From the NCBI RefSeq assembly GCF_029168945.1, contig NC_083601.1, positions 72,405,595 to 72,469,594 of the forward strand: a stretch of 64,000 nucleotides of DNA, given 5' to 3'. A model generated the notes under the pieces. That model did no database searches, had not been told where the DNA came from, and saw only the letters and a list, made by a program, of their open reading frames with translations. This DNA is from Cannabis sativa (Eukaryota > Streptophyta > Magnoliopsida > Rosales > Cannabaceae). Positions 1 to 40,993 of this stretch are shown here, piece by piece (within the stretch, counting starts at the first letter, position 1; each line of letters opens with the position of its first letter). The position numbers were made by a program, and so were the translations under genes.

Positions 1-771
1 TGATCCACAAGATTTTGTCACACAATTTGTGACACGCAATATTCTGATTATGTTGAAAATAAAGAATATTTACACCATATTGAAAATTTTAATTATTTTA
101 CTTTTATGATAGGGAATTTTTTTAAAAAATACTATATTTTGTTCTTAAAAAAATATTGTGTAAATTTTATCTTTGTGTTCGTGTTAAGTTTTCGCGGTTG
201 TTGTTATTCTAGTTTTCTTGTTGTTTTAATTATTCCGTTTTGTTTTCTTACTGTTGTTTTATAAAAGAATAGTATTTTTGTAAAAAAATTCCGTATAACA
301 GTAAAATTATAAACATTTATTCAAAATATAATATTTTTGTAAAAATCTCTAAAAAAAAAATAATAAGGGTCCTCCGTGTGCGCAACTACATAATATGATA
401 TGAATGAACACGTCTCTCATTGTATTATTTTCAAATACTAAGGTCCAACTTGAACAAGAATGTCAAGGAATAAAACCCGAAAATCAAAGAAAGCAAGTAG
501 TGAACTTGAAATTTGTTTATATATTTATTTTATAAAATATTATCAGTACGTAACTTACTTACTTAATTGAATAAAAATAAAACCTTGCTCGATGAAATAA
601 TCGAGTTGTTTGTTTTAATTAGTAGTTTAGTTTAAATTATATTTTTGCCACATAAATTATTCAATAAAAAAATTGAACTAAAATTTCTCTACATTTTAAA
701 AACAAGTTGTATTGGAAGGTCAACCGTTACACTCTATTTATAAAGTATTCTATATAAAACATCACTTTTCC
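1..771. other. AT-rich intergenic DNA, no gene seen
   Basis: Homopolymer-rich AT sequence without a convincing reading frame. It leads into the LINE remnant that follows. Confidence 0.6.
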
Positions 772-855
772 CGTGGCATTGCTGCTTGGGCTGCATCCCG
801 GAATTTGGCTCGTTTCCTTTTCGTTGAGGAGGTTGCTCCTATCGTTCAGCGTTGA
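772..855 (+). pseudogene. C-terminal remnant of LINE-type RNase H
   Basis: A 28-codon frame ending in TGA at 853-855 reads like the tail of the RNase H-like domain (RVT_3 type) at the end of plant LINE polyproteins: an Ala/Arg-rich stretch with S-R-N-L-A-R-F, followed by V-E-E-V-A-P-I-V. The bases after the stop, an ATGAAAT stretch and an AT-rich tail to about 892, resemble a LINE 3' end. The upstream part is missing. The assignment is by motif resemblance only. Confidence 0.5.
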
Positions 856-908
856 TTATGTTGGTTAATGAAATGTTCTATAGTTATAAAAATATAGCGT
901 ACTCCTTA

Positions 909-951
909 GGTGAGAGCATCACTTTTGCTCTCACCCATGAGAGCATTTTTG
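909..951 (+). repeat. Left TIR of the 909-4698 element
   Basis: This is the inverted counterpart of 4656-4698. It differs from it by a few substitutions and one extra terminal G. It contains an internal hairpin formed by GTGAGAGCA and TGCTCTCAC. Confidence 0.8.
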
Positions 952-1280
952 TTGTATTCTAATTGGTTAAATAATAAAAGTGCATGAAATTAAAATGGGT
1001 TAGTAACATATAAATATAATATATATTGGTAGTTTTTTTTTTTTAGAAAAAAAATTGCTATTTAGTTATATTAATGTTATTTTTTTTAAAAAAAATAAAT
1101 AAATTCAATACCATACACGTATGAAATGGTATTGTATAACAAAAAACAAACAAACAAACAAACAATTTAGTCAGGTATTTTTCTATTTTTCTTCTTTTAT
1201 CATCATCCCTAAAATCTATAGCCATCATCATCTCCAGCATCATACCTCACCCACCAACGCCACCCCTCTTACAGGTTTGA

Positions 1281-1417
<137 letters not shown>

Positions 1418-1628
1418 TTCTATAATTTCTTATTTCTCCCTTAACTGCTCCAATAACATCACCGGACTTCTCATTACTAGTAGACTTCAGTGAACGCTTA
1501 ATCGTGCGTGTTGATGACTTCTACATAAAGTATATTATAAATATTAACAAAAGATGTTGTGAACACAAGGACTTAATATACACATATATACAAATTTTTC
1601 TAATTAAACCATTAAATTCTTCACTTAC

Positions 1629-4056
1629 TGTAATTCCCATCTCACGTTCAAGAAAAGTTGACCAAACTGAGTGGTCTTTTGAAACACTGCATCGTCAAAG
1701 GCTAATTGTTTTCCACGCACACAACCACTCTTCAATGTAGTATCCCATACACTTGTGGAAGTCTTTGTTGGAAATTATTTTACTAGGATCTTAGATCTAC
1801 TCACAAGTATGTTGATTAACATCCTAAATATGAACTTTCTAAAACGATGAAATAAACACATATAAAGTTTAGGAAACCTTACATTGGGTGCAGCGGAATA
1901 TAATGACTCCTTCCGTTCAGATATCTAGCCCTTGATTCCTTTTTGTAGCAGAGCATTATCAATATCTGAACTTGGATCTCTTTCTCTGATTCTTTAGTGC
2001 TGAAACTCCTTCTTGCTGAAAGTCTTTCTTCACGATCTTCCTCACTATAATTGAGGTATCACTTGCTGTGTGTGGGCACTACTCTTACACTAAGAATTTC
2101 GAAATTCAAGAGGAAAGAAAGAGAGAGGTAGTGGTCGGCCAGATAGGGAGAGAGAAGGCTCAGGTTTTTCTCTGAAGGAAAAATAGAAAATTTTAGTGTA
2201 ATTTTCCTGAAGCCTTCACTATCTATTTATAGCATTCCACTAGGGTTAGGTTTGAATTATTTGGCATTAAAATAATGAAAATATCAGTTTAAATTCCCTA
2301 CAAAAGTGGCCGGCCATGCTTAGTGGATTTGGGCCTCACTTTTTGCAATTTTGCAGTTTTATCTTTTCTGCATCTGATTTTCTCAAAAACGCCAATTTTC
2401 AAATTCAACCATTTAAATGCCAATTCTAACTATTTAATAACTATAAATAATTATTAAATAATATTGTCATTTATCATATTTATTAATTGAACCATACAAA
2501 GTATCATAATTAACAAATATGCCCCTAAAACTCTTTCTTTACAATTTCGCCCTTACTTAGTGAAAAATTCACAAATAGACATAGTCTAATTTGAGAATTA
2601 TCATTGATTAATCAAAACCAATTATATGAGTCTTACAAGCAATATTATCTCAACTAGTGGGGGGACCATGGGTCTATATAACCGAGCTTCCAATAAGCAA
2701 ATCAAGAATTTATAACCTAAATTCACTGACTTATTAATTCTTCGTTGAATCCACGCATAGAACTTAGAATTGCACTCTCTGTATATAGAATGCTCTATAT
2801 GTTCCACCATATAGACACATCATTAGTTATCCATTGTTATTATCCTAATTTGATCAATGATCCTCTATATGAATGATCTACACTGTAAAGGGATTAGATT
2901 ACCGTTACACCCTACAATGTATTTAATCCTTAAAATACTTAGCCCCGTATAAATGATATTTCAGCTTATGTGAAATGAGATCTCCACCATTTATTTTCGT
3001 TTGGTCAAGCTCGAAGGAGATCATCCTTTACTTACTATTCGCCAGATAGAAGCTATAGATTCCATGTTTATGTTAGCGCTCCCACTCAATTGCACTACCG
3101 TGTTCCCAAAATGTACGTATCACCCTGACCCAAAAGTAGGCTTAACTAACAAATCAAAGAACACGAATAGCCTCTTGAGATTGAGCCTAATCATAACAGG
3201 ATTAAGATCATTTGATCTAGGATCAACTAGGCGATATTGACTTGAATAGATATTACGGTAAGTTTAATACATCTAAGTCAAAGTTCAATATCGGTCCCTT
3301 CCGATGCATACTCCATGCATCCAACCTGAGCTTTACTTTAACCAATGCTCTGGAAAGAACATAACATTTCTCCAAATACAAGTAAACTCTGTTGTAGATT
3401 ATCATATCAGTAAAACCCTGTGTCTATAAATCTAGGAAACTTTATTCACATAGTCATGTTTACTTTCCAATGTGTTGACAGCACAATAAACAGGATCAAG
3501 TATGTGAAAAGGGTTTCAGATGAATTTATACATTATGTACATATAATCATGAAATAAATCATGTGAACCATGCAACATTAAATGTTATTTCTGATCTATA
3601 TTAATAAGTAAATCTGATTATATTGAAATGAGTTTTATTTAGGGCATAAAACCCAACAGTCTTACCATTGACACTTTTAAAAAAAGCAATTGCAGGTGAA
3701 GGTGTTGGTAAATTCGATTCAACAGCCTCAGTAGTTGACTTCTCACCAATATACTGTTGATTGAAATGATCTTGTTTCTTTACATTTTCATTAATGAGTA
3801 TAACAGATTCATTTTTAACTCTAAATTCTCTGCTCTTCTTCTTACCTAGCTCATTTGAACCCTCATCCAAACTCCCAAGATAAAATTTTAAATTTTTTGA
3901 TTGAAATTGTTTTCGATCCTCATCTCGCCTTTTACCCTCCTCAGATAGGGTATGCATATCAGATCGTATTGTACGGACACTTTCTTTCAACTCATCGTAG
4001 GATGTTCCCAATATTTGTAAAGTTTTCAATATGTTATCCAAAGGTACTGCTTCCAT
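1629..4056 (-). pseudogene. Transposon-borne gene split by a solo LTR
   Basis: The ATG at 4056 follows an AG acceptor-like site. The frame starts MEAVPLDN, is rich in Lys, Glu and Arg over its first 60 residues (possible coiled coil), and runs to the LTR insertion at 3658. If the LTR and one GTCTT copy are set aside, the frame stays open for about another 45 codons between 1765 and 1629, to a GTAAG donor-like site. A probable non-coding first exon at about 4240-4312 precedes an intron holding the (GA)n tract. I do not recognise the protein family. It may be a transposon accessory protein or a captured gene. The LTR insertion has inactivated it. Confidence 0.45.
1766..3658 (-). mobile_element. 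Solo LTR of the large-LTR family, minus orientation
   Basis: A complete LTR reading TG...CA on the minus strand (TGTTGGGTTTTATGCC start; TTCCAACA end). It is flanked by perfect 5-bp duplications GTCTT at 1761-1765 and 3659-3663. It is closely related to the LTRs at 31397, 40994, 50040 and 56477. A TATA box reads TATAAATA on the minus strand at 2224-2231. With no internal region and intact TSDs, it is a product of LTR-LTR recombination. Confidence 0.93.
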
Positions 4057-4115
4057 ACTATAAATAATTCAAATATGATAAGTTAAACGAAAATTAAAAT
4101 AATCTTTGAGTATGA

Positions 4116-4221
<106 letters not shown>

Positions 4222-4655
4222 TAACACATAGAACCTGTTTAGTCTTAGCGTCGGCGTTGGCTTCGGTGGTTTCGGTTGTGTCAGTTGTGGTGGCGGCAGA
4301 AATAGATGAAGCTTTTGGTTTTATTTTTAGAAATACTAATTTCTTTTTTTTTTTTGAATAATTTTTGTTGGAAATAATTTGAATAGAGAGTGAAGTTGAA
4401 ATAATTTTGTTGGAAACAATTTAAATAGGGAGTCGGGTAGAACTAATTTTTTAACAAAATCAGATCATGCCTTGAATATAGGAGAATTTTTTTTAAAAAA
4501 ACTAACGTATTCATTTTTTAGAAAGGTAAAAAAAAGAGATCATGCCTAGATTATAAGAGAATTAAAAATAAATAATAAAAATTCTATGTGTGATACCTCA
4601 TGATAATCAAATAAACTACAATAAATTATTACCATTAGATTAAAAATCAAAGGTT

Positions 4656-4698
4656 TAAAAAATGCCCTCATAAGTGAGAGCAAAAATGATGCTCTCAC
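4656..4698 (-). repeat. Right TIR of the 909-4698 element
   Basis: The reverse complement matches 909-951 over almost its full length. It is followed directly by the TTA duplication at 4699-4701. Confidence 0.8.
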
Positions 4699-4701
4699 TT
4701 A

Positions 4702-5084
4702 AGAATATATATCACTTTTGTATTTACTTATAAGTGCATTTTTGTTTTTGGTACATGAAGAAAATACAATATATATTTTTATGATAATGTATATATGATA
4801 CACAATATATATTATAGTATAGTAAATTTTTGGCTATGCCATGATTTATCTGAGTATATACTATAATTTAGATTAAAATTTATTAAGTATAGATGACTAA
4901 TTATACTTATTGTCAAACTTTTAAACTAATTACAATATATATTATTATATAATACTTTATTATATTAAAAGATGAATTACATACATCTATTTAAAGTATT
5001 GAAAGATTATTTTTAAATTATATTTGAATTGTAAATTTTTTTATACAAGTAAGGGGAATTACTTTTTTTTCTACCAGTACACTA
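4702..5084. other. AT-rich DNA, nothing recognised
   Basis: Low-complexity AT sequence between the TIR element and the GC-richer repeat block at 5085. No open frame of note. Confidence 0.6.
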
Positions 5085-5400
5085 TCTCGGGCCTCGACGG
5101 GCTCTTTAGACTGCCGATATTGACCAATAACGGGGGCCCGGGCCCGTCGAGATAGGTATCGAAAAATGTTAAATTAGGATAAAAATATACCTATATATCT
5201 TGACGGACATAGACTGCTGAGATTGCATCATAATTAACGGTGAGTTTTGCCCGCCGAGAGTGTCTAAAATAACGAAGGACCGGGACCACCGAAATAAATT
5301 CACCACCAATATTCTTATCATTGAAATTTATGGTGGGCCAAACCCGCCGAAATTGATCAATAACGGGGACGAGCCCGCCGATATAAACCTATTTTTTTGT
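5085..5400. repeat. Degenerate GC-rich repeat block, possible TE terminus
   Basis: Variants of a motif of the form GCCGAtATTGAcCAATAACGGGG followed by GCCCG recur at about 5110-5145, 5215-5255 and 5335-5380, spaced roughly 100 bp apart. Subterminal repeat arrays of CACTA-like elements look like this, but I found no CACTA terminus or TSD here. The class is unassigned. Confidence 0.4.
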
Positions 5401-5599
5401 GGTGTTAATGCGCCTGTGTGTTTTTATATATATATATATATATGTATATGTAAAATAATTCTAGTTTGGTAAATTATTTAGAAGTATTTTAAAATTAATG
5501 GACTATTAATACTTTAAGTACTATGTACAATGTTATGTAAAAAATTGAATTATAATTTTTTATATGCTATAAAAACATAGATGACCTTATAACTTATTA

Positions 5600-6185
5600 G
5601 TATGGTTGAATATCCAATTCAATTCATATATTTTTCTTCTAATCTAATTTAATCTAATTGGTAATTAGATTTGAAAATTCATTATCCGATCCAATCTAAT
5701 TAGGACTCAAAATTCAATCTCATTCAATCCAATTATTAATTTCAATTGGGCTAGTTTTCTAATTAGATATCTAATACTTACATACCTATTTTTTATATTA
5801 ACCTAAAATCATGAAGAAAAATAAAAGTAAATAAATATTATTCTTCAGTTAAGTTTAATACTCCATAAATATATCATTTTTATAAGTTTAATGCAACTAA
5901 AAATTTAAAATAACTAAAATAACAATACTCCCAAATAGTGAAAAAGAATAAAAATTATAAAAATAAATATACAAAACAATTAAGTATTACAAATTAAACA
6001 ACAACAGTAAAATTGTAAAAATTAAAATAAAATATAATTGGATTGATCAATTTTTAATAATTAGATTTTAAAATTGACACTTAATAATCGATTTAATCTA
6101 ATTAAAATTCAACTTTTAATATCAAATCTAATCCAATTATAATTGGATTAAATCAATTTAGTTTAATTGAATTGATTGGATCCTC
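5600..6185. repeat. Possible MITE with long imperfect inverted halves
   Basis: The left part (about 5605-5780) is rich in AATCTAATT and CCAATTCAATT motifs. The right part (about 6030-6182) carries their reverse complements (AATTAGATT, AATTGAATTGATTGG). This suggests a MITE-like inverted-repeat structure of about 580 bp. The ends and TSD cannot be fixed by eye, and low complexity inflates the apparent match. Confidence 0.35.
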
Positions 6186-6364
6186 TCCATTAAAATAGAG
6201 TGACCCCCGATGATAAAATCTCCTAATATATATTCGTGTTGGTTGTAAATGTTTTGCTCTTTTCTAATTAGTTTATATGTTTTAATGATCATTTGTACAA
6301 ATACAATTATTCAAATAATATTTTTTTTAACTCAAATCGGTATCTTTATTAATTAATCAAATCG

Positions 6365-6778
6365 TTAAAAACAAATAGAACGTGCTTCAAAGGAACAATC
6401 CTCCAACTGAAGCACACAACCTGGAGAGAAACAAGAATCTCTAGCTAAACATTGAGCCAGCTTATTTGCAGATCGTTTGACAAAACGAGATTCAACATTG
6501 TCGAAAGATAAAAGCAAGGCACGAACATCATGCCCTAAAAGACCAAAAGAAAATGACATAGAGACTTGTCCCCAATTGTAACGATCAATCCAACTTAATG
6601 CTTCTTTGATGCCAACCATCTCAGCAACTTCAGGTTGAACCCTCCCTACATGACCCGGATTAAATGCCTCCACGATATTACCATGGCAGTCGTGAGCCAC
6701 ACAACCCCACCCAAACCTGCCTTCAACCATCTCAAACCAGACAACCATAAAACATCTCAACCTAGAAAACTTAGTCAC
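6365..6778 (-). pseudogene. LINE RNase H-like domain fragment
   Basis: A 137-codon frame with features of the plant RNase H-like domain at the C terminus of non-LTR retrotransposon polyproteins: an early GWGCVAHD strand, an E-x-x-G-I-K-E-A-L helix, and near the end F-V-K-R-S-A-N-K-L-A-Q-C-L-A-R. No reverse transcriptase is seen upstream on this strand (6779-7210). This is a 5'-truncated LINE relic. The T-rich bases at about 6320-6330 could be the old poly(A) tail. Confidence 0.6.
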
Positions 6779-8089
6779 TCAAACCAGAAAACTTAAACTT
6801 CTCAAACTAAAAAATAATGGCAAAAACCAAAACAATCTCAAACCAATAATCAAGAACCAAACTCAGACCATAAAACAATCACACCATGTCACAAAGACAA
6901 GACTTACGGTAACGGAACCGAACAGAAGACAAAAGACAAAAGACAAAAATTTTACTAGATAAACTAATAACAGTAAATTAACTAAGAATCTAACCCCATA
7001 AAAACCTAATTAGAATTAACTACTAACAGTAAAAATAGAAGCAACAAAATTAAACACAGATTTTAAACCAAACTCAAAACAAGATCCCCTTGTCGCTGCC
7101 TACGTCGCTGCAGAATCCCATCGCCGAAATCATGGTGTGTGATCATCAAAAAACCAAGGACTTCAAAACAGAGACCAATGTGATCACATGGAAGCGACAA
7201 CTTCAATACCCGAGTGCTTCAAATAATATTAATTAATCATCAGATAGTGAATATAATTAGTTAATTTATATTTTTATAGAAATAGTATAATTAATTTATT
7301 TATTTTAATTAAGCATTTACATATTACACATTGCATAGTTTGAGATTCCAATCAAGAACTCTAAATACACATTTTCCTATGAATATTTGAGTTAGCCTTA
7401 AGTGGTTGTATAATTAATTTGTTAATTATTGTTATTATTTTTTTTTTTGGTGCATACTTTGCTAGTGGTGTCTTCTTCTTCTTTTGGTGGTTAAAATCTC
7501 AACAAGGAAGCTACAATAAATTAATGAAGTAAATAGATCAGAATAGAATAAAAGAAATTGAATTAAGCACATTTAAAAGATCACATGTAAACTAAGAATC
7601 TAAAAAAGAGAAGTGTATTCTCTTGTCTTATAACGACTGCTAAAGAATTGTGTCGTATCGAATTTTAAATAAATAATCTAATTCTATATCCCATACGACA
7701 ATATTTCACCTTTATCACGAGAATCATGCATGAATATATTTTCCCAAATTAATTCTATATCCAACTTTTGATCACTCAAACTATAATATTCATAAATTCT
7801 CTCCTATTCGACACCCGAATATGCCATTGCCAATAAGCCAAGCAAATATTTGGAACTTATTATATATGTTAATTCCATAATATAAGGGGTGATATCTCAT
7901 CTCATATTCAGCACACATGTTTCGATTTCGAATATAATTATATAAGAGCACAATAGTCATGATCTGTAGCCAGCAAATGGTGTTAGTTTTCGTATGAATG
8001 GACCCCACCAAATTTTATTATTAAAAAAAACAAAATTAAGATGGACAGATATATATAATGGGATTTGGTTGATAATAGGAAGCACATAT
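6779..8089. other. Non-coding, AT-rich; nothing firm
   Basis: No supported gene. 6785-7210 is A-rich and could be degraded LINE-associated sequence. 7210-8089 is low-complexity AT DNA. Short open frames here show no family motif. Confidence 0.5.
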
Positions 8090-8098
8090 TATAATTAA

Positions 8099-8343
8099 GG
8101 GATCTTGGCGGCTAAACTATCTGAACTTTACGGTTTGTAACACTTAACCACAAAAATCGAATTTTTGGCGGCTAAACTACCTAAACTCTAGTTCCGTTTT
8201 GGTCTGCACACCTCTGTCCAAAAATCACAGTTAAATGCCACGGTGGACTGTCTACGTGTACAAGTGTGTACACGTGGCAAATTTTTAGTGGTCCACGTAA
8301 TATTAGTTTTAAAAAATAATTATAAATATTAAAAAAAAATAAA
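8099..8343 (+). repeat. Left TIR of the Pack-MULE
   Basis: Matches the reverse complement of 9330-9574 closely. It contains two direct copies of TTGGCGGCTAAACTA and a hairpin (ACGTGTACA, 4-nt loop, TGTACACGT). Confidence 0.9.
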
Positions 8344-8649
8344 AAATCAGAAATAAAAAATAAAATATTTTTTTTATTATTTTTTTTTCTTTTTCTTTTT
8401 TTCTGCTTTTATTTATTTTTTTTTTCATTTTTTTGTTCTTTTTTATTTTTATTTTGATTTACTCTTTTCTTCCTCCTCTCGCAAAACCTACACCCACCCA
8501 CTCCTTCTTCTTCCTCTTCCTTTCTTCATCTCCTTCGTCTTCTCGCAAAACCCTAACCCTTCTTCAATGTTAGCTTTACTACCCAAAACCTTTTTCCATT
8601 GTTGCTCTGTTGGACTAAACCTTAGCAGTCTTATTCCTTGTTTCTACAA

Positions 8650-8959
8650 ATGTCTTGGGGCTACAAAAGATGCACCTTTCTCAACCCCTCATCTCAGAAA
8701 TCCACTTGCCAAATCTGCTTTTCATCTGAATCGTCGTCATTGCCATCATCATCATCTTCCTCTTCTCTTGCTTCTACCCCGAAATGGTCTTGCAAAGCTT
8801 GTACTTTCCACAATCCATAAAAATTCCAACTGCGAAGTTTGCGACACTAGGGCACATGTCTCGTCTTTTTCGAGCTTTGAGGATTTGAACGATACGGGTC
8901 CGGGATCCGAATCGGACTCTTCAAAGGGGGTCTGTTTTCATGCCCTTGCAGCCTTGTGA
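8650..8959 (+). pseudogene. Captured RanBP2-type zinc-finger gene fragment
   Basis: From the ATG at 8650 the frame begins MSWGYKRCTFLNP and contains a C-x2-C ending in CQIC. After a Ser-rich spacer comes a second module WSCKACTFHNP, completed in another frame by N-C-E-V-C. W-x-C-x2-C-T-x3-N with a distal C-x2-C is the RanBP2-type zinc finger. One frameshift at about 8817 separates the two halves of the second finger, followed by an acidic/Ser-rich stretch (SSFEDLNDTG). In plants such tandem fingers occur at the N terminus of larger proteins, but I cannot name the parent. Non-functional as it stands. Confidence 0.7.
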
Positions 8960-9007
8960 GAGGATGAAGATTTCTGAACCAGTCGAGGTCGAACCAGATT
9001 TTGCCCA

Positions 9008-9171
9008 TTGGGGTCGGAGATAAAGAAGGCTATGGAGGAGAGGAAGGCGGCGGAGAAAGAGGAGAGGGTTTTCAAGACAGAGTGGCTGAGGAGATTAGGA
9101 AAATACAGTGGCCGGCGTTTGATAAGGTGTTGGGGACGACTGGGGTTGTGTTGGGTGTGATAGCTGGCTGA
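9008..9171 (+). pseudogene. SECE1: Captured chloroplast SecE1 fragment
   Basis: The translation reads LGSEIKKAMEERK, then after a one-base frameshift near 9070-9083 it reads RVAEEIRKIQWPAFDKVLGT followed by TGVVLGVIAG, ending at a TGA at 9169-9171. This matches the conserved core of plant plastid SecE (thylakoid Sec translocase subunit SECE1): amphipathic helix, W-P-[AS]-F motif and the start of the membrane helix. The remaining transmembrane segment and the C terminus are absent. It lies about 50 bp after the zinc-finger fragment, so two unrelated genes were joined inside one MULE. Confidence 0.85.
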
Positions 9172-9329
9172 GGAGGGTTTTCGTATATATATTTCATGAA
9201 GTAGAAAGAAGAAAGAAGAAGAAGAAGAAGAAAGAAGAAGAAAAAGAAAAAAAAATTAATTTAATAATTTTCTTAAATTATGAAAAGTAAAAAAATAAAA
9301 AAAAAATAATTAATTTTTTCTGATTTTTT

Positions 9330-9574
9330 TTTTAATTTTTTAAATATTTATAATTATTTTTTAAAACTAATATTACGTGGACCACTAAAAACTTGCCATG
9401 TGTACAAGTGTGTACACGTGGACAGTCCACCGTGGCACTTAACTGTGATTTTTTGACGGAGGTGTGCAGACCAAAACGGAACTAGAGTTTAGGTAGTTTA
9501 GCCGCCAAAAATTCGGTTTTTGTGGTTAAGTGTTATAAACCGTAAAGTTTAAGTAGTTTAGCCGCCAATATCCC
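9330..9574 (-). repeat. Right TIR of the Pack-MULE
   Basis: Inverted counterpart of 8099-8343, with the same twofold TTGGCGGCTAAACT(A) motif. It is followed by the TSD TATAATTAA. Confidence 0.9.
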
Positions 9575-9583
9575 TATAATTAA

Positions 9584-11583
9584 TTAATAACAAAGATCGA
9601 AATAGCTCCATCAAAAGGTAATTAAAATTTTTGTAAAATTTTGATATATACCAATCATGCTTCTTATTTTAATTAATATTTAAATATTTTAATAGTATTT
9701 TATAATTTAAATTTATCAAATATAAATCAATTTTTATAAAATAATAAAAAAATAATACTGTTTTTAATTAAAATACTAATTTACTATCTATTCTCTATTA
9801 TAGAAAGTCATTTCTTATATGACTGTAACTCATGCAAGCATACTTTAATTAAAGAGTGTGTTTAAAAAGTACATTGAAGATGCTCTAAAAATTAAAAATA
9901 AGAGAACTTGATTAAATCATAAATAAAAGAAATTTCCCATGGTTTTTCCAAGGAATATATCAAGGATAATGATTTTTATTTACTTTTATTTAATTTTTTA
10001 AAATTAAATATATAATTACAATTTTTCCTTAAAAATATGATACAAAATAACTAACTTAAAAAGATAATTTAATTAATTTAATTACATTTTCTTAAAAAAA
10101 GATAAACAACATATCATCATTTCATTTCCAAAAAAATAATATATTACAAATATTAATTTTCATCATTATTTCTTTTCTTCCGTTATATTTTTTGATTGAT
10201 TGTGAATACTATTTATATATTTTTTGATTGATAATAACTCTTATTTATATTTATATATTTATTTAGTCAATTAAAGCTAGCGCGGCAGTGGTGTAAATTA
10301 TTGTTTTTTTTTTCCTTAAAATATCTTAAATAATAATGTCTTAACCAATAACTTTATTCAAATTTCATACTAGTTAATCTTATCTCACCTCGTCATTAAT
10401 CTCTATATGCATCAATCATCTCAATCAATTAGTTATATCACTCCTTTTTGTTTGTTAATTAGTTCTGTTTTTTTTAAGACTTGGCATAGCCAATTATCAC
10501 AAGTTGCATACACGTACGTCATTAGTTATATATTTATATATACAATAATAATTACATGTAAAATGACTACCATTTTCTAGCCCTCTCAAACTTGTTTTTT
10601 CGACCCCAGATTGCTGAGAACAAATATCTATAATAATTACTAATAAGGCAAATAGCAATAAACATTTAGTGGTATAGACTATATATTGCTTATCAAATTC
10701 AAAATAAATATATGATTAATTAAATAATTATCATAACAGTATATATATGAATTATGTAACGTGTGGATATGTGTGATCGGCTTTTTACGTGATCATTAAG
10801 AGTCTAAGACGGCAATCCTGTATGTATTAATTAATTATTAAGGCTAATTAATAACTTAATCAAACAATTTGTGTATGTAAGACAAATTCATATTAGTAAT
10901 TCATAGTGGGGGACATCGAATTGAATACGATTGCTCTCAACTATTTGACCTTTTCTATAGCAAATGTCGACGTTTTTTGTTAATCAAATTATACTTTTTT
11001 TTTTCTTGTATAAAAGGATAAGAGTGCAAGTAGTTTGATTCAGCACTTATCACAATTGGATAAGAATATATGCAGATAATTAAAATTAAAGCAGAGAATT
11101 TTAAATTTTTTGATCAGAAGAGAATTTTAATTTTTCATTAATTAATATATGTGAGTCTATATACTATAATCACTATTTGGTTTTCATCAGAATTTATTCT
11201 TCCAATTTCCAAATATCAAAATTAAATATATTTAGATAAGAAAAAATCAAAATTAATATTAGTTTTAGGTAAAGTTTACTTTTTTTTTTCTTCTTATTTA
11301 GATTGTATGTGAAGGTATGATTACACGAATGATTTGTTTTAGCAAATTAATATTTGTGCTATTATAATTGGTTGGTAAAATATAATTAGGTATATATAAA
11401 TCAAAATAAAATGATACTTATTATTTACTTCTAGAAAATTGGGTATATGAAATACTTGCATACAATACTCCATGTAAATCCGTAGATAACAAGTCAATAG
11501 AAAGTGAAAGAAGCTCGGCACCAAGAAAAGTCTTAACACTAAATAAAATAAAATTACTGTAAAAGAAAAATAGCAACTTCTGC
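9584..11583. other. AT-rich DNA between Pack-MULE and Helitron
   Basis: No gene or structured repeat recognised. The 3' terminus of the minus-strand Helitron should lie here, to the left of its last exon at 11584, but no CTRR end with a GC-rich hairpin could be identified. Confidence 0.5.
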
Positions 11584-14500
11584 CTAATCTTCCATTGGTT
11601 CAACTGCTTGAATGGTGAACTGATTGTACTTTGAACTCATTGTTCGGTTTGCATCTACGTACAACTGAATTCTCCATTTTTTGGCTGATAGTTGCCTTGT
11701 AGTTTTTTGGACAAACAACTTATGTTTCTGAAGAAAAAAAATGATTAGTTATAAGTTTTAATGTATTTCTATATACGAAAATGTATAAATTTTACATATT
11801 TATTTTTTTATAGTTACCTCGTCCGAATATGATCTTAATTGAACTGCAGTACATGAGAATATGTTTTCTGCAACATCACCGAACATCACAGCATCTAGCA
11901 ACTCTGTACCATCGTCGAGTTGTACATATGTCCTTGCACTAATAATTTATACAGAATATGTAACGGTTAGTATGAATATGCAAGAAGTTCAAGTATTAAT
12001 TTAGTTATAATGTGCTTACCGTGGTGTAGGAAGACATCTTTTTCCGCATTTTGGATTTTCACAATCTGTTTCTTCGTTGTCGTTGTAGAACATAAGTTTC
12101 TTATTACAAAAATCACACGACATGTAATAATATTTTCAGCATATTTAAATGTACGAAATTGATAGAAATATATACGGTGGTAGTTAGTATATAAGTACCT
12201 CTCTTAGTTTGAACAATCATCTTTGTTCCCATTATTATTGGGTTGTTTCCAGTAACTTCAGACAATTTTTCACTAATATCTTGTACCAAAGCACCCCACA
12301 GAGTTAAACATATCGGGTGGAAGCTACAACTGTAATTGAAAATAGTAATGGTAATTATTAGTTTTGCTATGTATCATAATTTTAAATCCACACTACTACA
12401 ATCTTGGCCTTTAGAGGCTGTTTTTTCACTCCCACTTATAAAAAGGGAAGCTAAAGGGTGTGAAAATACCCGTTTTTTTCGAAATTGACATTTAGAGGCG
12501 GTTTTTTGATAAAAACCGTAGGTATAAAATTGCATTATACCATTTAGAGGCGGTTGGGAAATAATTTTTTTTTTTTTTTAGGTTTAGCCCTATGCCGTCG
12601 GTTGCTTTATAGGAACCGACGGCATAGGGTACACGTGTTTGCGGACACGTGTACCCTATGCCGTCGGTTATTCTATAATAACCGACGGCATAGGGTTATA
12701 TATGCCAACCCTATGTCGTCTTCCTCATTCACCTCACGCGAACCAAACCAGAGAGCACAGCCACCACCAGAGAGAAGAGAAAACCCTCACCAACCACCCC
12801 TCCGCCAGCCCTTTTCTCCCCCATTTCTCAACCATTTCAGCCCATTTTTGTTGCAAAATCTTCTATTTTCGATACTTAATCCTATACACCCAAAAAGTTT
12901 TAATTTTTTTCCCTATTTCACTGTCATCCGAACCTATACAAAAATAGTGGGTATAACTCCGGCCACCATTTTTTGTTGAGAAAACATTGAATCTCAACCT
13001 CTTTTAAGGTATAAATATAGTTTCTATTCATTTTTATAATGTACATTGTTTTATTTTTAGTTTTTGTAAATTATTTTTTGGGTTTTTTAATTTTAATGGT
13101 AATATTGTTGTGTTGTATGTGTATAGTGCCCGAATTTTTTACGGAATTGCTCGTTGGATTGCGGTTATTAGGTAAAAATTTAAAGCTCAACATATAGTAT
13201 ATATATGTAATTTTATATTTTATTGAATATGTGTGTATATAATGTGTGTATATTAGTGTGTGTATAGTTTAGAAATAAAAATTTTAAAATTAAATTAGTG
13301 TGGGAAATAATTTTTTTTTGAGATAATAGTGTGATATATAATTGATTATATATATATGTATGTATAATTTAGTAACTAAGTAACTTGTTACTATTTTTAA
13401 TAACTAGTTATAAGTAATGAAATAATTATTTTTGCAATTTCGTTGTATTTGTTTATATTGTAGGTTCGGTATAATTTTGTGTGTAGTGTATTTGAGCTTG
13501 CATTGATAGGTATATACTTTAACTAACTTTTTCTTATTATATAATTAATTATCAATGCATGTTAGTTGAGTTTGAATATCTTAAATATTCATCCGTAGTG
13601 AAGTAGGTTCTGCGAATACATGTACTGCGGTCGGATGGGTGGATAAATTTTGTATTGGTTATCTGTTTTGTTTGTTATTTTAGGCACTTTTAAAATTTTT
13701 GGGAACGTCCAATTACAGCCGTTGTGCTGCCGAAATTTCGGTAGAATTAGGATAAATCTTACTAAAAAAATATTAATATTTACATCACCCAAAGAACTAA
13801 TTAGCTATAACATAGTAATAAGATGTTAGGTCACTAAAAAATAATCTAACCATTTGTTATGTTAGCTTACTAATCTAGTGAAAATGGTGACCTTAATTTT
13901 AAAATTTCTTTCAAAATTGGAATCAAACATGCCCAAAAATTCATCTTTGCCATAACTAATAAAAAAAAAAAAATCCCAATATCATTTCAATCATCTTCTT
14001 TTTGGGTATAATTGATGACCATTGTAATGATTAGCTACATGGTCCACAACATGTTTAACACTTTACTAAAATCACAATCCTTAAGCTAAATGTCATTCAT
14101 CATTACGCATAATAATAGTAATAAAAAAAAAAGTTACTTAATTATGGAAGAAGAATACAAATGCAATAACAGATAAAAATAATAAAAGTAAATTAAAGCA
14201 AAAAACACATTTCTTATGCTTAAATCATTGATTCATTGTTCTGTTAACCTAAAATAGAAACCCAAAGAAATCGAACGAGACTTACTTCCATTAACATACT
14301 CCAACTCGGGAATGACTTGATATATAGCTTACTTTATATTGTGGTTGTGAATGCTCCTAAATCATTAACATATTGTTTATGCTTTTAATATTTCATATAC
14401 ACTACTTGTTATATATATAGCTAACTTTGAAGTTTGTTTGTTAATGGTGTAGACATGGCGAACTCGGAATCAGGATCTGATTCGGGAGCAGAAAATGAGT

Positions 14501-17500
14501 GTCCAACCACAATACCTACACGAGGGCCGACGCAAATGAATGAAATATCCAAACTAATGGATCAGGGCAAAAGAGTGGCCCTCGAAGTTAATGATAAAGG
14601 TCAATACTGTGGAAAAAGCTACGCGAAGCTCGTATCCACTCTGGGAGTCAGATGTCGGCAGACAATAGGGTTGGCTTATAAAAATTGGAAAGAAGTCAAC
14701 CAGACTCTGAAAAATAAAGTTTGGAAAGACATTCAGGTAAGCTATTATTTGTTAGAATTTTGATTTGTTTTTCTATTACTCCAAATGTTGACTCTAACCG
14801 TGTTTGTTTTCCTTCAAAATAGACGGGGTTCATTGTGCCGGACACCTTCAAACATGATTGTCTCATCCTAGCTGGGAAGTTAATGAAAGACTTCAAGAAT
14901 AGGATGACAAAAGACATCATAATGCCCGCGTTGAAAGAGAATGATCTGGGACGACTAGCACAAGTCCCCGAAAAGCACCGGAGATCGACGCCGCCGATTG
15001 GTGCAAATTTGTTGAAAGTAGACTAACTCCTGAATTTCCGGTACGCTAATTATATTAACACTAAGATAAACTCTTAAATACAAGTACATGTATCTAATGT
15101 ATTTTTTTGGCATTGTAGGAATTGAGTAAGGTGCAACGTGAACGTTCCTCAAAAATTCAATCCAGACATCGAAGTGGTCGGAGTGGAATGGTGAACGTAC
15201 GGGAAGCTGTGGTAAGTAATACTAAAAATTTAATGTGCTATAATGTGCTATACAATTTAATTGGTACTCATTTCATTGTTATAACGTTATGTAGAAAAAG
15301 GACCTCGAAGTTGCAGATCCTCCCCGCCACCGTGTTTGGATTAAATCTCGCACCAAGAGTAGAAAACTTGTCACTGATTACGACAAGGAAATTGCCGAGA
15401 AGATAGTAAGTATATATTAATCCTTAATTGAGTTCTACTCATGAGTTAGTGTATATAATTCATATACTAATTGCTTGAATATATGCGTGCATTAGGCTCA
15501 ATTAGAGGAGAAGCTTAGTCAGGGACAAATTCAGGTCCAGGGCCAAAACGATATCCTCACGCAGGCGCTCGGACACCGCAGCATCCCGGAGCGTGTCGGG
15601 CCGCCGGGTATGCTATTACTTCAAATGTTATTTATTTAGTTACACAAATGAAATCGTTGCTAATTTGCATTTTATGATTTGTAGGTTCCTGACCAGGGCA
15701 TCTCAACTGTTCGGCAGGAAGAAAAGGGAAGTGTCTGATGTTGTGGCTCGGCAAGCGAAGGAGATTGAACAATTAAAAGCCGAAGTCCAATCCCTTAAGC
15801 GACGGAGAGGAACGCTGCCGAACAAGAGGAAGAAGGAGAGGTGGCTGGTGAGGCGTATGTTCCACAACCATACGCTCCTCAGGATGAGGTACAACCACAA
15901 ATTTATGCTGAGGAGTTCATTTCCCTCAACGACCAAGGTATCCTATACAATTTTGATGACCATGCGGCCCTTAATCAGCAAGTACATCTCTGCTCTGACA
16001 ACATCGACAATATTGTGGCCCGAGGGTATTTGTACGAGCATGTGGGTAAGATCAAAGTTCACTGCCAGGATTACGATGATTCACATGCTCGGATCATGGT
16101 TTCGGAAATCCTGCAAGAGGACGCTGAAATCCCAGTCCCACTTGAAGAGTTCAGATATGTTAGGGACGTGTACCAGATGTTCCTTCCTTGGCCTAAACAC
16201 TTAATTTTAACAACCGAGGTAACTTCTCAACTGAAATTAATTATTAATGATTAGTGGAGTTTGAATATCTTCAATATTCATCCGTAGTGAAGTAGGTTCT
16301 GCGAATATATGTGTTGCGGTGGGATGGATGAACAAACATACCGTTATATATGTGTTATTTGTCGTTATACAGCCATGTTCAAAATTTTTGGGGTCATTCA
16401 ATTACAACCGTTAGTTATCTTCTTAGAAATTTCAGTAGAATTTAGATAAAATTTGATATATATATATATATATTATGTTCTGTTTTGTTTAGGGTCCACT
16501 CGCTCAACCGCCCTCAAGACGTGATGCGTCAAAGGGGAAAGCTCCGATGCTTTCTCCACAACGCCGTGGTGCACGGGAAGATGAGTTGTTCACGGAAGAG
16601 AAGATGGCGTTGATCCCTAATTCGCTAAAATGGATGATTCATGAATTCCTAAGGCTCAAAGATAAACGTGATATAATCACAATTTCTGTCCCCCGAGGAT
16701 TCATTGCACCGCGTACCCAGATCATTTTATCTGGAGAGGATTTGCAGCAGGTTGCTACGTGTAACTACATCGGCAACCAGGGAATGCTGTTTGGAATGAT
16801 GTATACTCTTCTTTAATCTAATTAACCTTATATCAAATTATAGTTAAATTATTATAAGGCACTAACACTTTTTTTGGCGAGCACATATGGGAGAGCATCA
16901 ACGGTCTGAGAAAAATTTTCAAGTTTTACGACCCGTAGCTTCTCACAAGGTGCATGGGATCGGCGATGAAGAACGAGTCAATCTTTTGACGATGCGGCAA
17001 GACGATTGGCTAATTGGTTATCATTAATGAACAACAACCACCAAATGTTCTTTATTCCTTGGAATATCGGGTAAACTTTATTAAATTCTTTAGTGCTAAT
17101 TGTTCATTTCTATATTATGTCTTCAAATTATTTTTATACTATCTTACTTATATTCCAATATAATTTTCTAGGATGCATTGGACGCTAGTGGTGGTTGCGC
17201 CAAGGAAAATTATCCATTTAAACCCTGTAAAAGGCCGCCCAATTCCCGAAGAAATAGAACAAATGATCGGAAGGTAATTATTTAATGACTTCTTATGTAA
17301 CGAATTTAAATTAACTAACGAATTGAAATGCTAATATAATTTTCCCAAACAGGGCATTCATGTATATAGGGGACGCACATCAGTATCTTGGCCCGTGGCA
17401 AGGAATTTCACAAGCAAACTGTCCAAGACAACCTAAAAGCCAAGAATGCGGTTTTTATGTTTTGAAATATATCACTGACATCGTCGCACGTGCCAACCCC

Positions 17501-19055
17501 AACCGTTACATAGAAGATCAAAAAGCTGTAAGTTTTAATTATTGATCATAGTATATAAATTTTATAATAACAAATATATAATATACATATACATAAACTA
17601 ATATAAATTTTTAATTTTTTTAACAGTTTGGGGGTAAGAAGCAATACGATCCAAAAACAGAATTGTTACCACTACAGCGAAAGTGGATCGAACAATTGAT
17701 GGCGGTGATTCACGGTGACGATTGAGGTTCAAAGGTCGAAGAATTTTTCTTCATTATGTAATTTTTATAGATTAACTTGTAATTAGATTTATTAACTTAT
17801 TAATATTTTTAACTAATTTTACATGTTTGTGTAATATTTAATTATTTTTATGAAATCAAATTAAATTTTTACCCAAATTTAATTACTATTTAATTTAAAA
17901 TGTAATTAATATATAATTAAATTAAATAAATATGTAATTTAAATTAAATATAATAATATATAAATTAATAAATATAAAATTAAAATTATATAATTAAATT
18001 AAAAAAAATGAAAAAAACTGAAATCTGCTCACTTTTGGCGTCGGTTCCTACAACCCCTATGGCGTCGGTTATTGGCTAGGAACCGACGCCATATATACCC
18101 CTATGGCGTCGGTTCCTAGCTAATAACCGACGCCATAGGGGTACATATGGCGTCGGTTCATATAAACCCTTTAGCGTCGCCTTGATAGGCGTCGGTAGCG
18201 AATTTCGCGAAAACCGACGCCTAAAGGGCTTAAAAACCCCCTCTAAAGGGTGTTTTTGTAGTAGTGCCATATGAAATTATTATGAGTGCTCCAATGAAGA
18301 TTATCATTATATATTTGTATGTTATATTATATATACCTGTCATCGATTAGATAAATTTCTTGTATGGTTCGCTGTCCATACACTGTGTTCACCACTTTTG
18401 TTGGGTTTATCTTGACAGCTACTCCTATGATATCTAAAAATTGAATGTGATGTTAGTTAAAACTTCGTAAATCATTTGTCATGTTGGTATATCGTTGGGA
18501 TCCGAAGTTACCTTGTGGTGTGTTGGAGTATTTGTCAGATGACAAGTTCTTAAACGAAACGAACTCATGGACTGGCTTAGAAATTTGTTTGTCTTCATCT
18601 TGGACCTCAACAACTTGTGTTTTTGAGTTCAGCGTCCAGCTAAAATTGTAATTTGTGCCATTTTTAAGGTATCTGGCAGGGGTTCTGTTGACACGGGCAT
18701 CACTGATGTGGTAGGTGTGTAACTCATGCAAAGTGTCCTCCAAAGCTTCAATATCTTCTGCGAAAATTACTGCATCTACTCTCGTCCCCTGTGTGAAGTT
18801 TATCAATATAAGACATGCAATTAGATTTTGTATTAGATAACTATTCAAATTAAAACTTGTCTAGCAATGTGCAACTAATATTATTGAAAAAAAGAGGAAT
18901 AAATTTACCTTTGGATCAGATAAATACAGCTTCTGATATCGGACTGGTGAACTCATGCTTGTTCGTGGTGGAAATTTTTGTAGAACTGTCATTTTTATTT
19001 TCCATCCAACTGTGGTTGGAGTGATATCATCAACTGATTGGTGTAGAGTCAGCAT
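11584..19055 (-). CDS. Helitron-borne RPA70-like ssDNA-binding protein
   Basis: Seven exons read on the minus strand: 18909-19055 (ATG), 18512-18788, 18337-18433, 12199-12329, about 12020-12137, 11818-11938 and 11584-11727 (stop). Phases agree across the first three introns. The first exon has the N-terminal OB-fold signature (WKIKMTVLQKFPP, KLYLSDPKG). The fourth has C-S-F-H-P-I-C-L-T-L-W-G. The fifth holds a zinc ribbon (CDFCNKK...CENPKCGKRC). The end reads AVEPMED. This is the large-subunit RPA fold that plant Helitrons carry, presumably to coat single-stranded DNA during rolling-circle transposition. The CACTA element lies in the third intron. No AG acceptor is visible before the zinc-ribbon exon (TGCTG where TGCAG would be expected), so splicing may be impaired. 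Confidence 0.8.
12588..12696. repeat. Left subterminal hairpin array of the CACTA element
   Basis: Two hairpins built from CCCTATGCCGTCGGTT and its complement (12588-12630 and about 12653-12695). Between them is a third hairpin, TACACGTGT paired with ACACGTGTA. Subterminal motif arrays in CACTA elements are binding sites for the TNPA-type protein; that role here is inferred. Confidence 0.85.
12700..12980 (+). promoter_or_regulatory. Probable 5' UTR/leader of the CACTA gene
   Basis: CA-rich, C-rich sequence (ACCACC, CACCAACC, CCCTTTTCTCCCCC) of the kind seen in plant 5' leaders, followed by AT-rich intron-like DNA. A leader exon here spliced to the coding exon at 14455 is plausible but not proven. 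Confidence 0.35.
13564..13765 (+). repeat. Imperfect direct repeat inside the CACTA element, copy 1
   Basis: Pairs with 16254-16455. Both contain TTGAATATCTT, ATTCATCCGTAGTGAAG and TAGGTTCTGCGAATA, and later a CCAATTACA(G/A)CCGTT-like stretch. This copy lies upstream of the coding exons. Confidence 0.8.
14455..17725 (+). pseudogene. CACTA-encoded En/Spm-type protein with Ulp1-like protease domain
   Basis: At least ten exons can be traced: 14455-14736, 14823-15040, 15119-15211, 15295-15405, 15496-15607, 15685-16218, 16493-about 16800, about 16890-17070, 17172-17273, 17353-17527 and 17627-17725. The first exons match the plant En/Spm (Ptta) domain (GKSYAKLVSTLG, ADWCKFVESRLTPEF). Exon six has a coiled-coil stretch (VVARQAKEIEQLKAEVQSLK). 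The last exons form a C48/Ulp1-like cysteine protease: MHWTLVVV with the His, and QECGFYVLKYI with Gln and Cys. The usual triad Asp is Asn (IIHLNPVKG). Decay: a one-base loss near 14980, a frame break near 15800 and a TAG in the exon after 16880. It is therefore a broken gene. Confidence 0.75.
16254..16455 (+). repeat. Imperfect direct repeat inside the CACTA element, copy 2
   Basis: Second copy of the roughly 200-bp unit at 13564-13765. It fills most of the intron between the exons ending at 16218 and starting at 16493. Confidence 0.8.
17726..18036 (+). other. 3' region of the CACTA element, no gene
   Basis: AT-rich sequence between the stop codon and the right subterminal array, probably including the 3' UTR and polyadenylation region. 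Confidence 0.5.
18037..18233. repeat. Right subterminal repeat array of the CACTA element
   Basis: Multiple direct and inverted copies of GGCGTCGGTT, with partner AACCGACGCC, within 200 bp of the right end. The left array uses GCCGTCGGTT, so the two ends differ at one motif position. Confidence 0.85.
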
Positions 19056-19273
19056 CTGAAATGCACATTTAATAATTATATTTCGTTAATTGTTAATTAA
19101 ATAATATTAAAAATTATTGTGTATAAGTAGCATTTCAAATGTAATAAATTATTAATGCAATATAATGTTAATATGGTAGCAATTATAATTCATATAAAAA
19201 AAAGTACTTAGATTGATATGCATGAGTTTAGGATAGATAATTACTCGGTCACTTTGCAAGTTGTTTGAAGAGA

Positions 19274-22200: not shown

Positions 22201-23634
22201 TTCCTTCCAGTTTGGATTGCATGTCATCGTTAGAAAAATATCAGGTTTACCATAGCGTTGTACCAACGCCATTGCCTCCATGTATCTCTTCCTCATGTCT
22301 CTTGGTCCTCCTATGAAAGATGAAGGGAGTATGATTCGCTTTCCAACATTAGAAGCGTCTCGTTCTCCCAGCGTAATTGTGTCAACTATACCTTGATATA
22401 ATTCTGTTCGTATGTGCATTTGCTGGCCTCTGTAATAATCCAATCTTGAAGTCTCCATCTTGACATACATGTCTACTGCATATTGTTGAAGTAGCCGACT
22501 AAAGAGTAGCAAAATCGATCTTTCATCTTCTCGTATTTGGAACTTGAAGCAGTAATATTCACGGCACGAAACCTTTGGTTCTTTCGTTTCTTGGATTGAT
22601 ACTGCATCAATTTGAATTGAAGGGAGTATAATAATATAGTTAGATGTGAACATTGAGTGATTTGTACCTATTTATTTAAATATATATAAATATTTATACA
22701 TATTCAAGGATTGTTTACCTGCTTCTTCTGCTGCTAATAATTCTTCTACATTTGATGATCGTCGAGGGTTTGTTGTTTGAGTTTGTTCGACGGATCTTGA
22801 TTGGGTTTCTCCAACCCTTTCAATCCCTTTATGCCAACCATTATCACCGTACGGAAATAACAATGGATATTGCAGTGAGTCGTAACACCCGTAGTAATAT
22901 TGAACTTTAAATTGTCTACCGGAATGGTTATATACAAAGATATCACGCCTTCCAATTTGGTTCTCGTTGTCATTTTCAACCCATATTGCCGCTACTTGTG
23001 AGGAAGTAGGGGCATTGAATACACGTTGATCTAGGCCAGCGTCACTCCTAACATGTATTATTTGTCTTTCCAAATCTGGCATATCACCAAGTGAACGAAA
23101 GAAAATAGAGTACGGATTGATGCGAAGAATATGGATGAGTTGACTTGTGACTGTTGGGAGCATTCTGTATTGTGAATCTAATAGTCGATTATCTAACTCA
23201 TGTTCCGTGTCATAGAAATATAATTGGAGATTAGAAGGACGACCATCAGAAGGAAGTAAATCTGTGATGTTGTGGTAGATTTGTCCCTGTGCTCTAAAAG
23301 TGTATATTCCATTGTTTCTTTGGCAGAGATTGTGATCATATTTAACACCCAAAGATGTGAATGCAAATTGGTTGTTATAAGTTCGAATATATGTCCGGAA
23401 ATGTGCAGAATCACTTGTGGTGGAGGTTAATAATGCAAAAAGTTCATTTGGAACTTCATTTGTGGCCAGATAGATCTTTCCATCTGCACAACAGAATCCA
23501 TTTGTTTCATGGATAAATCTCTTTGCTTTACAGTGTATGCATATGGGGACCGACGGAAGTGAAAATGCTTCAGATGGCACATTTTGTAGCAAATCTCGAA
23601 ATCGAGTGACCCTATTTTGCGATTGACCTATCAT
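19274..23634 (-). CDS. Helitron RepHel transposase-helicase, one frame break
   Basis: The N-terminal exon (ATG at 23634, or an acceptor just before it, to 22719) is a Helitron-like N domain with a C-x2-C...CC zinc motif. After an intron (22718-22602) comes the Rep part: the HUH motif GLPHAHFLII near 22030 and the tyrosine-rich Y2 region KYLYKYIYK near 21610. The helicase part has Walker A GPGGTGKT near 20590, Walker B IIWDEAP, GGDFRQVLP, and C-terminal INKSQGQTL and YVAISRAKT, typical of PIF1/SF1B helicases. Rep nicks and joins DNA in rolling-circle transposition while Hel unwinds it. A run of ten T at 20617-20626 separates the two frames by one base. Everything else is open, so this is either one mutation or a sequencing slip. 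Confidence 0.88.
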
Positions 23635-23882
23635 GATGAACGGTTTAATTAGGTTAAAGTAGCATACTGATATTTTGTTATTATGAATGTATACTAATAT
23701 GAAACAAATATTGTGATGTTGGAATAACACTTACTTCTAGAAGTTGTTGACATAATTGTGTGGCTAATTGAGTTCTCGAGATCAACTGAATGTATCTGTG
23801 TGGGATTTTTATTAGGTGGACTGTTGAGAAAAAACCGAAGGTAAGATCAATTAGAAAAAAGAAGGCGGTGTTCAGTATATAC

Positions 23883-24003: not shown

Positions 24004-24028
24004 GTATGATGATTGCATTATCTCTTTG

Positions 24029-24730: not shown

Positions 24731-24739
24731 AATTTAAAT

Positions 24740-26462: not shown

Positions 26463-26472
26463 CAGTACTTAT

Positions 26473-31267: not shown

Positions 31268-31268
31268 A

Positions 31269-33291: not shown

Positions 33292-33293
33292 AC

Positions 33294-40990: not shown

Positions 40991-40993
40991 GTT

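What the first reader, a model, noticed from the sequence alone, without database searches (positions are those of the whole stretch)
8099..9574. Pack-MULE that fused fragments of two unrelated genes
Seen: long TIRs and a 9-bp TSD TATAATTAA enclose a RanBP2-type zinc-finger fragment (8650-8959) and a SecE1 fragment (9008-9171) in the same orientation, about 50 bp apart. Known: Pack-MULEs acquire and combine host exons. Inference: two capture events, or capture of an already joined sequence, made a chimera. Both parts carry frameshifts, so any product would be a regulatory RNA rather than a protein.
Basis: partly seen in the sequence, partly recalled or inferred. Interest (0 to 1): 0.75.

Follow-up and report, generated by a model that had tools for sequence, protein, structure and literature searches.

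The report
Cannabis Pack-MULE joining two gene fragments
A small, decayed cannabis jumping element carries copies of the start of a DNA-repair gene and the middle of a chloroplast protein-export gene joined end to end; this is a known kind of event, seen here with both source genes identified.

Summary
The finding holds. Window 8099-9574 is a non-autonomous Mutator-like element: its 286-bp terminal repeats match at 252 of 286 positions, and TATAATTAA is duplicated at both sides. The host is Cannabis sativa. Both parents were found, on different chromosomes: TDP2 exon 1 on C1 (8549-9005) and SecE1 on C9 (9007-9167). Correction: the pieces abut at a shared ATTGGG; they are not 50 bp apart. The only other chimera found (C1:57.12 Mb) has the same flanks and target duplication, so it is a copy of the whole locus (or a misplaced allele), not a second transposition. 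The element belongs to a family of at least 37 loci with mostly different interiors, some holding host-gene fragments; another member joins pieces of two host loci. Left and right arms are of different subtypes, which is unusual here (2 of 29) and hints that two one-gene elements fused. Frames are broken in both copies; regulatory RNA is untested. Ordinary in kind, well documented.

The parts
8090..8098 (.). left copy of 9-bp target-site duplication TATAATTAA
9575..9583 (.). right copy of the target-site duplication
8099..8384 (+). left terminal inverted repeat (core)
   Evidence: 252 of 286 positions match the right one
9289..9574 (-). right terminal inverted repeat (core)
8099..8548 (+). whole left arm, subtype A: the inner part (about 8440-8548) is shared with both arms of L004, L006, L007, L016 and one arm of L005, L015, L017
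9168..9574 (-). whole right arm, subtype B (AAG-rich inner part)
8105..8190 (+). 26-bp terminal motif repeated 60 bp further in (8105-8130, 8165-8190); mirrored at 9483-9508 and 9543-9568
   Evidence: families D6, D7
8549..9005 (+). captured TDP2 piece: 18 nt before the start codon plus exon 1 sequence encoding two RanBP2-type zinc fingers; parent at G000:C1:44966960-44967430 (-)
9006..9012 (+). join: one unassigned C, then ATTGGG, a hexamer present in both parents at this point
9007..9167 (+). captured SecE1 piece (codons about 94-146 of the 176-codon gene); parent at G000:C9:10881014-10881172 (-)
8567..8959 (+). remaining open frame from the TDP2 start codon, in the wrong frame over finger 1; a longer version (P0004, 151 aa) is annotated as a hypothetical Cannabis protein
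8904..8925 (+). patch of 7 substitutions plus an adjoining indel, absent from the duplicate copy and, by its protein sequence, from P0004
1..11261 (.). block holding the element that is duplicated in inverted orientation at G000:C1:57118347-57129500 (97.7%)

Best explanation
A two-gene Pack-MULE of Cannabis sativa. Shown: a non-autonomous MULE with a subtype-A left arm and a subtype-B right arm carries TDP2 (18 nt before the start codon plus exon 1) directly joined to an internal piece of SecE1, at one 9-bp target site. Inferred: the pieces were brought together by DNA-level joining at short homologies, perhaps when an A-type element carrying TDP2 and a B-type element carrying SecE1 fused (neighbouring elements mobilised as one), because each gene sits next to a different arm subtype. 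The chimera inserted here (or was completed here), decayed by frameshifts, and was later copied together with its flanks to a second site on the same chromosome. It probably has no coding function now. The confidence given is for the two-gene Pack-MULE; I put the fusion route itself at about 0.5 against serial template switching.
For: TIRs and TSD. Both parents located, open in the matched parts; 6-9.5 kb around them hold only short arm matches of 17-81 bp. The junction carries ATTGGG from both parents; a shared 6-mer this close to a random join came up in 0.86% of 200,000 simulated joins. Arm subtypes usually match within an element: BB 18, AA 4, BN 3, AN 2, AB 2 of 29; 8.6 AB expected by random pairing. 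Family traits: 29 two-ended loci (duplicate included) of 1.0-1.8 kb, with perfect 8-10-bp direct repeats at or within 2 bp of the ends in 26; 16 of 30 interiors share nothing of 80 bp or more with the others. Pfam domains in 4 of 10 sister ORFs that I picked. Another sister, L015, has an interior X-Y-X from two host loci.
Against: No one-gene precursor (A+TDP2 or B+SecE1) was found in this assembly. The join is not a clean hexamer join: both copies read GCCC-ATTGGGG where TDP2 reads GCCAA-ATTGGG. The tree of the outer 300 bp separates A from B only weakly (71/96, bootstrap not settled), with 3 B-type arms on the A side and 4 arms of A-type elements on the B side. Arm homotypy is partly due to related copies (L004, L006, L007 share interiors), the type thresholds were set by eye after seeing the scores, and the one other AB element (L005) has a weak B match (56.3 bits). 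No autonomous partner or transposase was sought.
Confidence: 0.93

Rival explanations
1. Serial template switching in a single element: after a break inside an A-type MULE, gap repair copied TDP2, switched to SecE1, then to the arm of a B-type element. No fusion of two Pack-MULEs was needed. (A rival to the fusion step only.)
For: Short homology at the joins; sister L015 has an X-Y-X cargo with abutting pieces, which looks like leaving and re-entering a template; microhomology-guided switching is the published model for animal Pack-TIRs (PMC8277862, passages).
Against: Does not by itself predict that the arm subtype changes together with the gene; needs three switches.
Confidence: 0.42
2. Capture of a pre-existing host fusion of TDP2 and SecE1 in one event.
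For: The pieces abut and are in the same orientation, and the shared hexamer is in the same codon phase in both parents.
Against: Parents on C1 and C9; no joined locus found outside the two MULE copies in this assembly.
Confidence: 0.03
3. The element is a functioning source of regulatory RNA (siRNA) against TDP2 and/or SecE1.
For: 94.7% (TDP2) and 96.2% (SecE1) identity of the aligned bases to the parents; long inverted arms could give double-stranded RNA (inference); in maize, captured fragments including those in Pack-MULEs are reported as siRNA reservoirs (PMC13317346, passage).
Against: No RNA data. The raised substitution rate in the element compared with its flanks (29 of 1455 vs 60 of 9666) fits a silenced, decaying element equally well.
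Confidence: 0.1
4. The chimera encodes a retained small protein (annotated elsewhere as CsatA_019032, P0004).
For: P0004 runs from the TDP2 start codon across the TDP2/SecE1 join.
Against: In P0004 finger 1 is read out of frame and the SecE1 part is only a few out-of-frame residues; the window allele ends earlier (8959), and the duplicate stops inside finger 2. A search with P0004 gave 3 proteins among 7 candidates: itself and two unnamed TDP2-like ones, P0002 and P0003.
Confidence: 0.03

Closest known systems
Pack-MULEs with two or more parent genes (rice and relatives)
   Same: Non-autonomous MULE with cargo from at least two host genes; [quoted passage not shown]
   Different: Here in Cannabis; decayed frames; arms of two subtypes.
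Fused neighbouring Pack-TYPE elements (rice Pack-Mariner cluster 217, group AB)
   Same: An element that combines two smaller elements of one TIR family (PMC8903248, section 9 read).
   Different: Those are mariner elements with 15-nt TIRs that still contain both elements; here a long-TIR MULE, with no inner arms left and a direct gene-to-gene join.
Tomato PM-ZIBP Pack-MULE family
   Same: Dicot Pack-MULE carrying a fragment of a zinc-ion-binding protein gene; 944-1372 bp in the three complete table rows that I saw (PMC3310237, passages).
   Different: Copies with single or tandem TIRs and one parent gene in the passages seen; relatedness in sequence was not tested.

Membership tests
Pack-MULE | TIRs of at least 100 bp with at least 80% similarity | tested here: met
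   286 bp, 252 matches; criterion as used in PMC3310237 (passage)
Pack-MULE | 9-11-bp target-site duplication | tested here: met
   TATAATTAA at both sides
Pack-MULE | carries fragments of host genes found elsewhere in the genome | tested here: met
   TDP2 and SecE1 parents
Pack-MULE | no transposase of its own (non-autonomous) | tested here: met
   Interior accounted for by TDP2, SecE1 and arms except one base at 9006; no transposase family among the Pfam matches of five ORFs scanned
Pack-MULE | family mobile: same ends at many sites with different target duplications | tested here: met
   26 of 29 two-ended loci (duplicate included) with perfect 8-10-bp repeats, most of them different; shifts up to 4 bp were allowed, which favours matches in AT-rich DNA
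Pack-MULE | TIRs recognised by, or homologous to, an autonomous MULE with MURA transposase | not tested
   No autonomous partner was searched for
Chimeric (two-parent) Pack-MULE | cargo from two unrelated loci within one TIR/TSD pair | tested here: met
   Parents on C1 and C9
Fused Pack-TYPE element (two neighbouring elements mobilised as one) | outer arms from two different elements | tested here: inconclusive
   Inner arm subtypes differ (A left, B right), but the outer-arm tree is weakly supported
Fused Pack-TYPE element (two neighbouring elements mobilised as one) | one-element precursors present (supporting, not required: they may be lost) | tested here: not met
   None found in this assembly
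New protein-coding gene | conserved open frame spanning both parts | tested here: not met
   Frames differ between window, duplicate and P0004

The most novel reading that the evidence does not exclude
Two one-gene Pack-MULEs of different arm subtypes (A with TDP2, B with SecE1) fused at a 6-bp microhomology, and the fusion was an in-frame gene at birth: the shared ATTGGG lies in the same codon phase in both parents, the A arm ends 18 nt before TDP2's own start codon, and a stop codon (9169-9171) follows directly after the SecE1 piece. The element would then be a direct record of modular gene assembly by joining Pack-MULEs of different arm subtypes, since decayed. Against it: both surviving copies are one base short of the in-frame join.
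Probability: 0.17. Interest if true: 0.5.

Novelty: new member of a known kind. Interest (0 to 1): 0.3.

Why it matters
It is a worked case of how transposons assemble new gene combinations: both parents, all joins, the insertion site and a duplicate copy are identified in one genome. It points to a Cannabis family (at least 37 loci) in which arm subtype could serve as a tag to tell element fusion from template switching. I found no paper on Pack-MULEs in Cannabis in the held open library: the search 'Pack-MULE' + 'Cannabis sativa' listed 3 papers, none on that subject by title and start of abstract; the passages seen of the 2025 pangenome paper mention Mutator elements near genes and at duplication breakpoints but no gene capture.

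Tried and rejected
Independent transposition of the sister copy: rejected, because its flanks and target duplication are the same and the identity continues far beyond the element. Empty-site test: the left flank (7400-8098) matched only two places in the assembly, each next to the element, so no empty site was found. Introns as a test of DNA- versus RNA-mediated capture: uninformative, since the TDP2 piece lies within one exon and the SecE1 coding region matched without a break. Dating from TIR divergence: rejected, because the arms belong to different subtypes; no age is claimed. P0004 as an independent gene: rejected as an allele-like copy of the window locus; it shares the window's 4-bp deletion frame and 'DFAH' (the duplicate has 'DSAH'). 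Arm search near the parent genes: only matches of 17-81 bp. The DNA alignments of L002 and L003 (DNA part only) were made on the wrong strand and redone. A working note said 18 or more interiors were unique; the correct count is 16 of 30. Rows left out: matches under 500 bp or 93% identity or on the other strand; the duplicate and the 8 loci with one end only; I aligned 11 chosen A-side and 14 chosen B-side sister arms.

Full report
WHAT IS THERE. The element is bounded by 286-bp inverted repeats (8099-8384 and 9289-9574; 252 of 286 ungapped positions match) and by a perfect 9-bp direct repeat TATAATTAA (8090-8098 and 9575-9583). The terminal motif TTGGCGGCTAAACTA, sought with up to 3 mismatches, occurs only in these arms within the window (4 sites, all exact).

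HOST. The host genes of the assembly match proteins named Cannabis sativa: P0001 (RanBP2-type domain protein with PF03372) at 100% over its first 120 residues, with two later stretches at 98-99% and one at 71% where the match crosses a gap, and the SecE1 protein P0012 at 100% over all 176 residues. The window is G000:C1:72405595-72469594 of a 770.7-Mb assembly in 18 contigs.

CARGO. Window 8549-9005 derives from the 5' end of a TDP2-like gene: 18 nt before the start codon at 8567 and exon 1, which encodes two RanBP2-type zinc fingers. Aligned to the parent at C1:44966960-44967430, 436 of 464 aligned bases are identical over 8549-9017; over 8549-9005 K2P is 0.055 for the window copy and 0.041 for the duplicate copy. 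The name TDP2 rests on names given to several relatives (for example P0104, P0110, P0113, P0114) and on Pfam PF03372 in P0001 and most of the listed relatives (297 proteins at E up to 1e-5, 120 listed). Window 9007-9167 derives from SecE1 at C9:10881014-10881172: 153 of 159 aligned bases identical. The SecE1 gene matches its protein in one uninterrupted stretch, so no intron was seen in the coding region.

JOINS. TDP2 reads ...GCCAA-ATTGGGTGGG, SecE1 reads ...GTGA-ATTGGGGTCGG, and the element reads ...GCCC-ATTGGGGTCGG. The hexamer ATTGGG is common to both parents at the join and lies in the same codon phase in both. In a simulation of 200,000 random joins of the same two genes, 0.86% had a shared 6-mer that close. 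The element is one base short of a clean hexamer join, in both copies, so the fusion is out of frame as it stands; whether it was in frame at birth is open. The left join shares about two bases between arm and TDP2, and the right join about two between SecE1 and arm (read by eye).

SISTER COPY. The only other chimera found, at C1:57120047-57121505, has the same flanks and the same target duplication. Identity continues beyond the element: the whole 4459-bp locus matches at 98.2%, and inverted blocks of 95.0-99.5% run from 9.6 kb before the window start, where the fetched sequence ends, to window position 43674, interrupted by blocks present in only one copy. So the locus was duplicated with the element in it, or an allele was misplaced in the assembly; it is not a second transposition. 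The left flank has no third match (2 candidates, both scored). The annotated protein P0004 (CsatA_019032, from a record whose contig length, 66.6 Mb, fits none of the contigs of this assembly that I saw) is the same chimera: it shares the window's 4-bp deletion frame and 'DFAH', crosses the join, ends HWGRR, and lacks the patch of changes at 8904-8925.

DECAY. Shared by window and duplicate: a 3-bp insertion and a 2-bp deletion in the TDP2 part and a 2-bp insertion in the SecE1 part. Window only: the 4-bp deletion and the 8904-8925 patch. Between window and duplicate the element has 29 mismatches in 1455 aligned bases and the flanks 60 in 9666 (Fisher P 1.5e-6); 21 of the 29 are transitions, 14 of these at CG or CHG in one copy. 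Seven of the 29 are the patch, and several lie in poly-T stretches. In the flanks 13 of 36 transitions are at CG or CHG. This fits methylation of a silenced element (inference; not tested).

FAMILY. One search scored 40 of 1584 candidates and listed 143 matches. I examined 37 loci (36 besides the duplicate); 29, duplicate included, have both ends and 8 have one. Lengths are 1.0-1.8 kb; a perfect 8-10-bp direct repeat lies at or within 2 bp of the ends in 26 of 29 (shifts up to 4 bp were allowed, which favours matches in AT-rich DNA). Of 30 interiors (window and duplicate included) 16 share no stretch of 80 bp or more with any other. Of ten sister ORFs that I picked by eye from the output, four have Pfam matches above the cut-off: Mem_trans in L004, Bromodomain in L037 (one end only found), Methyltransf_16 in L023, PRA1 in L042; six have none. 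Sister L015 joins two host loci: positions 40-87 and 602-764 of the query match C1:43.21 Mb and 85-600 match C1:38.75 Mb, and the same interior occurs at four places, L015 and L017 among them (11 candidates, all scored). I did not identify these two loci as genes; the one ORF of L015 that I scanned had no Pfam match. So cargo from two loci is not unique to the window element in this family.

ARMS. The arms fall into subtype A (inner part to about 452 bp) and B (inner part to about 377 bp). With thresholds that I set by eye on the bit scores, 29 elements (28 sisters plus the window, duplicate left out) pair as BB 18, AA 4, BN 3, AN 2, AB 2 (window and L005); random pairing would give 8.6 AB (P 0.0004 for 2 or fewer). 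L005's B match is weak (56.3 bits). The window is A on the TDP2 side and B on the SecE1 side. Against this, the tree of the outer 300 bp of 68 arms puts the window's left arm on the side with 10 arms of A-type elements and 3 of B-type ones, and the right arm on the side with 47 of B-type and 4 of A-type ones, with weak support (71/96), and the bootstrap had not settled. Thirteen columns that tell A from B in the outer 300 bp give mixed readings in many arms. Some of the homotypy comes from related copies.

MECHANISM. Two published routes fit: mobilisation of two neighbouring elements as one, which gives elements with the sequence of both (PMC8903248, section 9 read), and microhomology-guided template switching (PMC8277862, passages). 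I favour fusion slightly because gene and arm subtype change together; L015's X-Y-X cargo suggests that switching or nested capture also happens in this family. Expression, if any, would start in the TIR, as stated for other Pack-MULEs (PMC3310237, passage); nothing here tests it.

NOVELTY. [quoted passage not shown] This is a new member in a species for which I found none in print. The searches behind this statement were made; of their hits I looked only at listings and at passages or sections of the six papers opened. Subscription papers such as the 2004 Nature paper on rice Pack-MULEs were not read (seen only as cited by others).

Noticed in passing
8904-8925: A patch of 7 substitutions and an indel against the parent gene, the duplicate copy and, at protein level, another Cannabis record; possibly conversion, error-prone repair or an assembly error.
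   Followed up: partly
1-11261, 30450-31397, 42941-43674 (and 43672-45455 at lower identity): Inverted duplication at C1:57.12-57.15 Mb, extending at least 9.6 kb left of the window; window 11262-30449 and 31398-42940 are absent from that place in the other copy, so they are later insertions here or deletions there.
   Followed up: partly
19274-23730 (-): Helitron coding region: PIF1-like helicase with 2B domain, and Helitron_like_N in an overlapping frame, within the block missing from the duplicate.
   Followed up: partly
31414-33290, 41011-42949, 50057-51921, 56494-58377, 43672-45455, 1764-3411: Repeat of about 1.6-1.9 kb in several copies, 76.6-94.7% identical to their best stretch in the duplicate region outside the main alignment, four of them at LTR-like spacing; copia-type gag at 43074-43727.
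   Followed up: no
24039-24755: Two tandem copies of a 364-bp unit, 93% matches.
   Followed up: no
L015 1660-2460: Sister element whose interior reads X-Y-X from two host loci and is present at four places in the genome; unlike the window chimera it lies at several places.
   Followed up: partly
8105-8190 and 9483-9568: Each arm repeats its 26-bp terminal motif 60 bp further in, a possible second transposase site.
   Followed up: no
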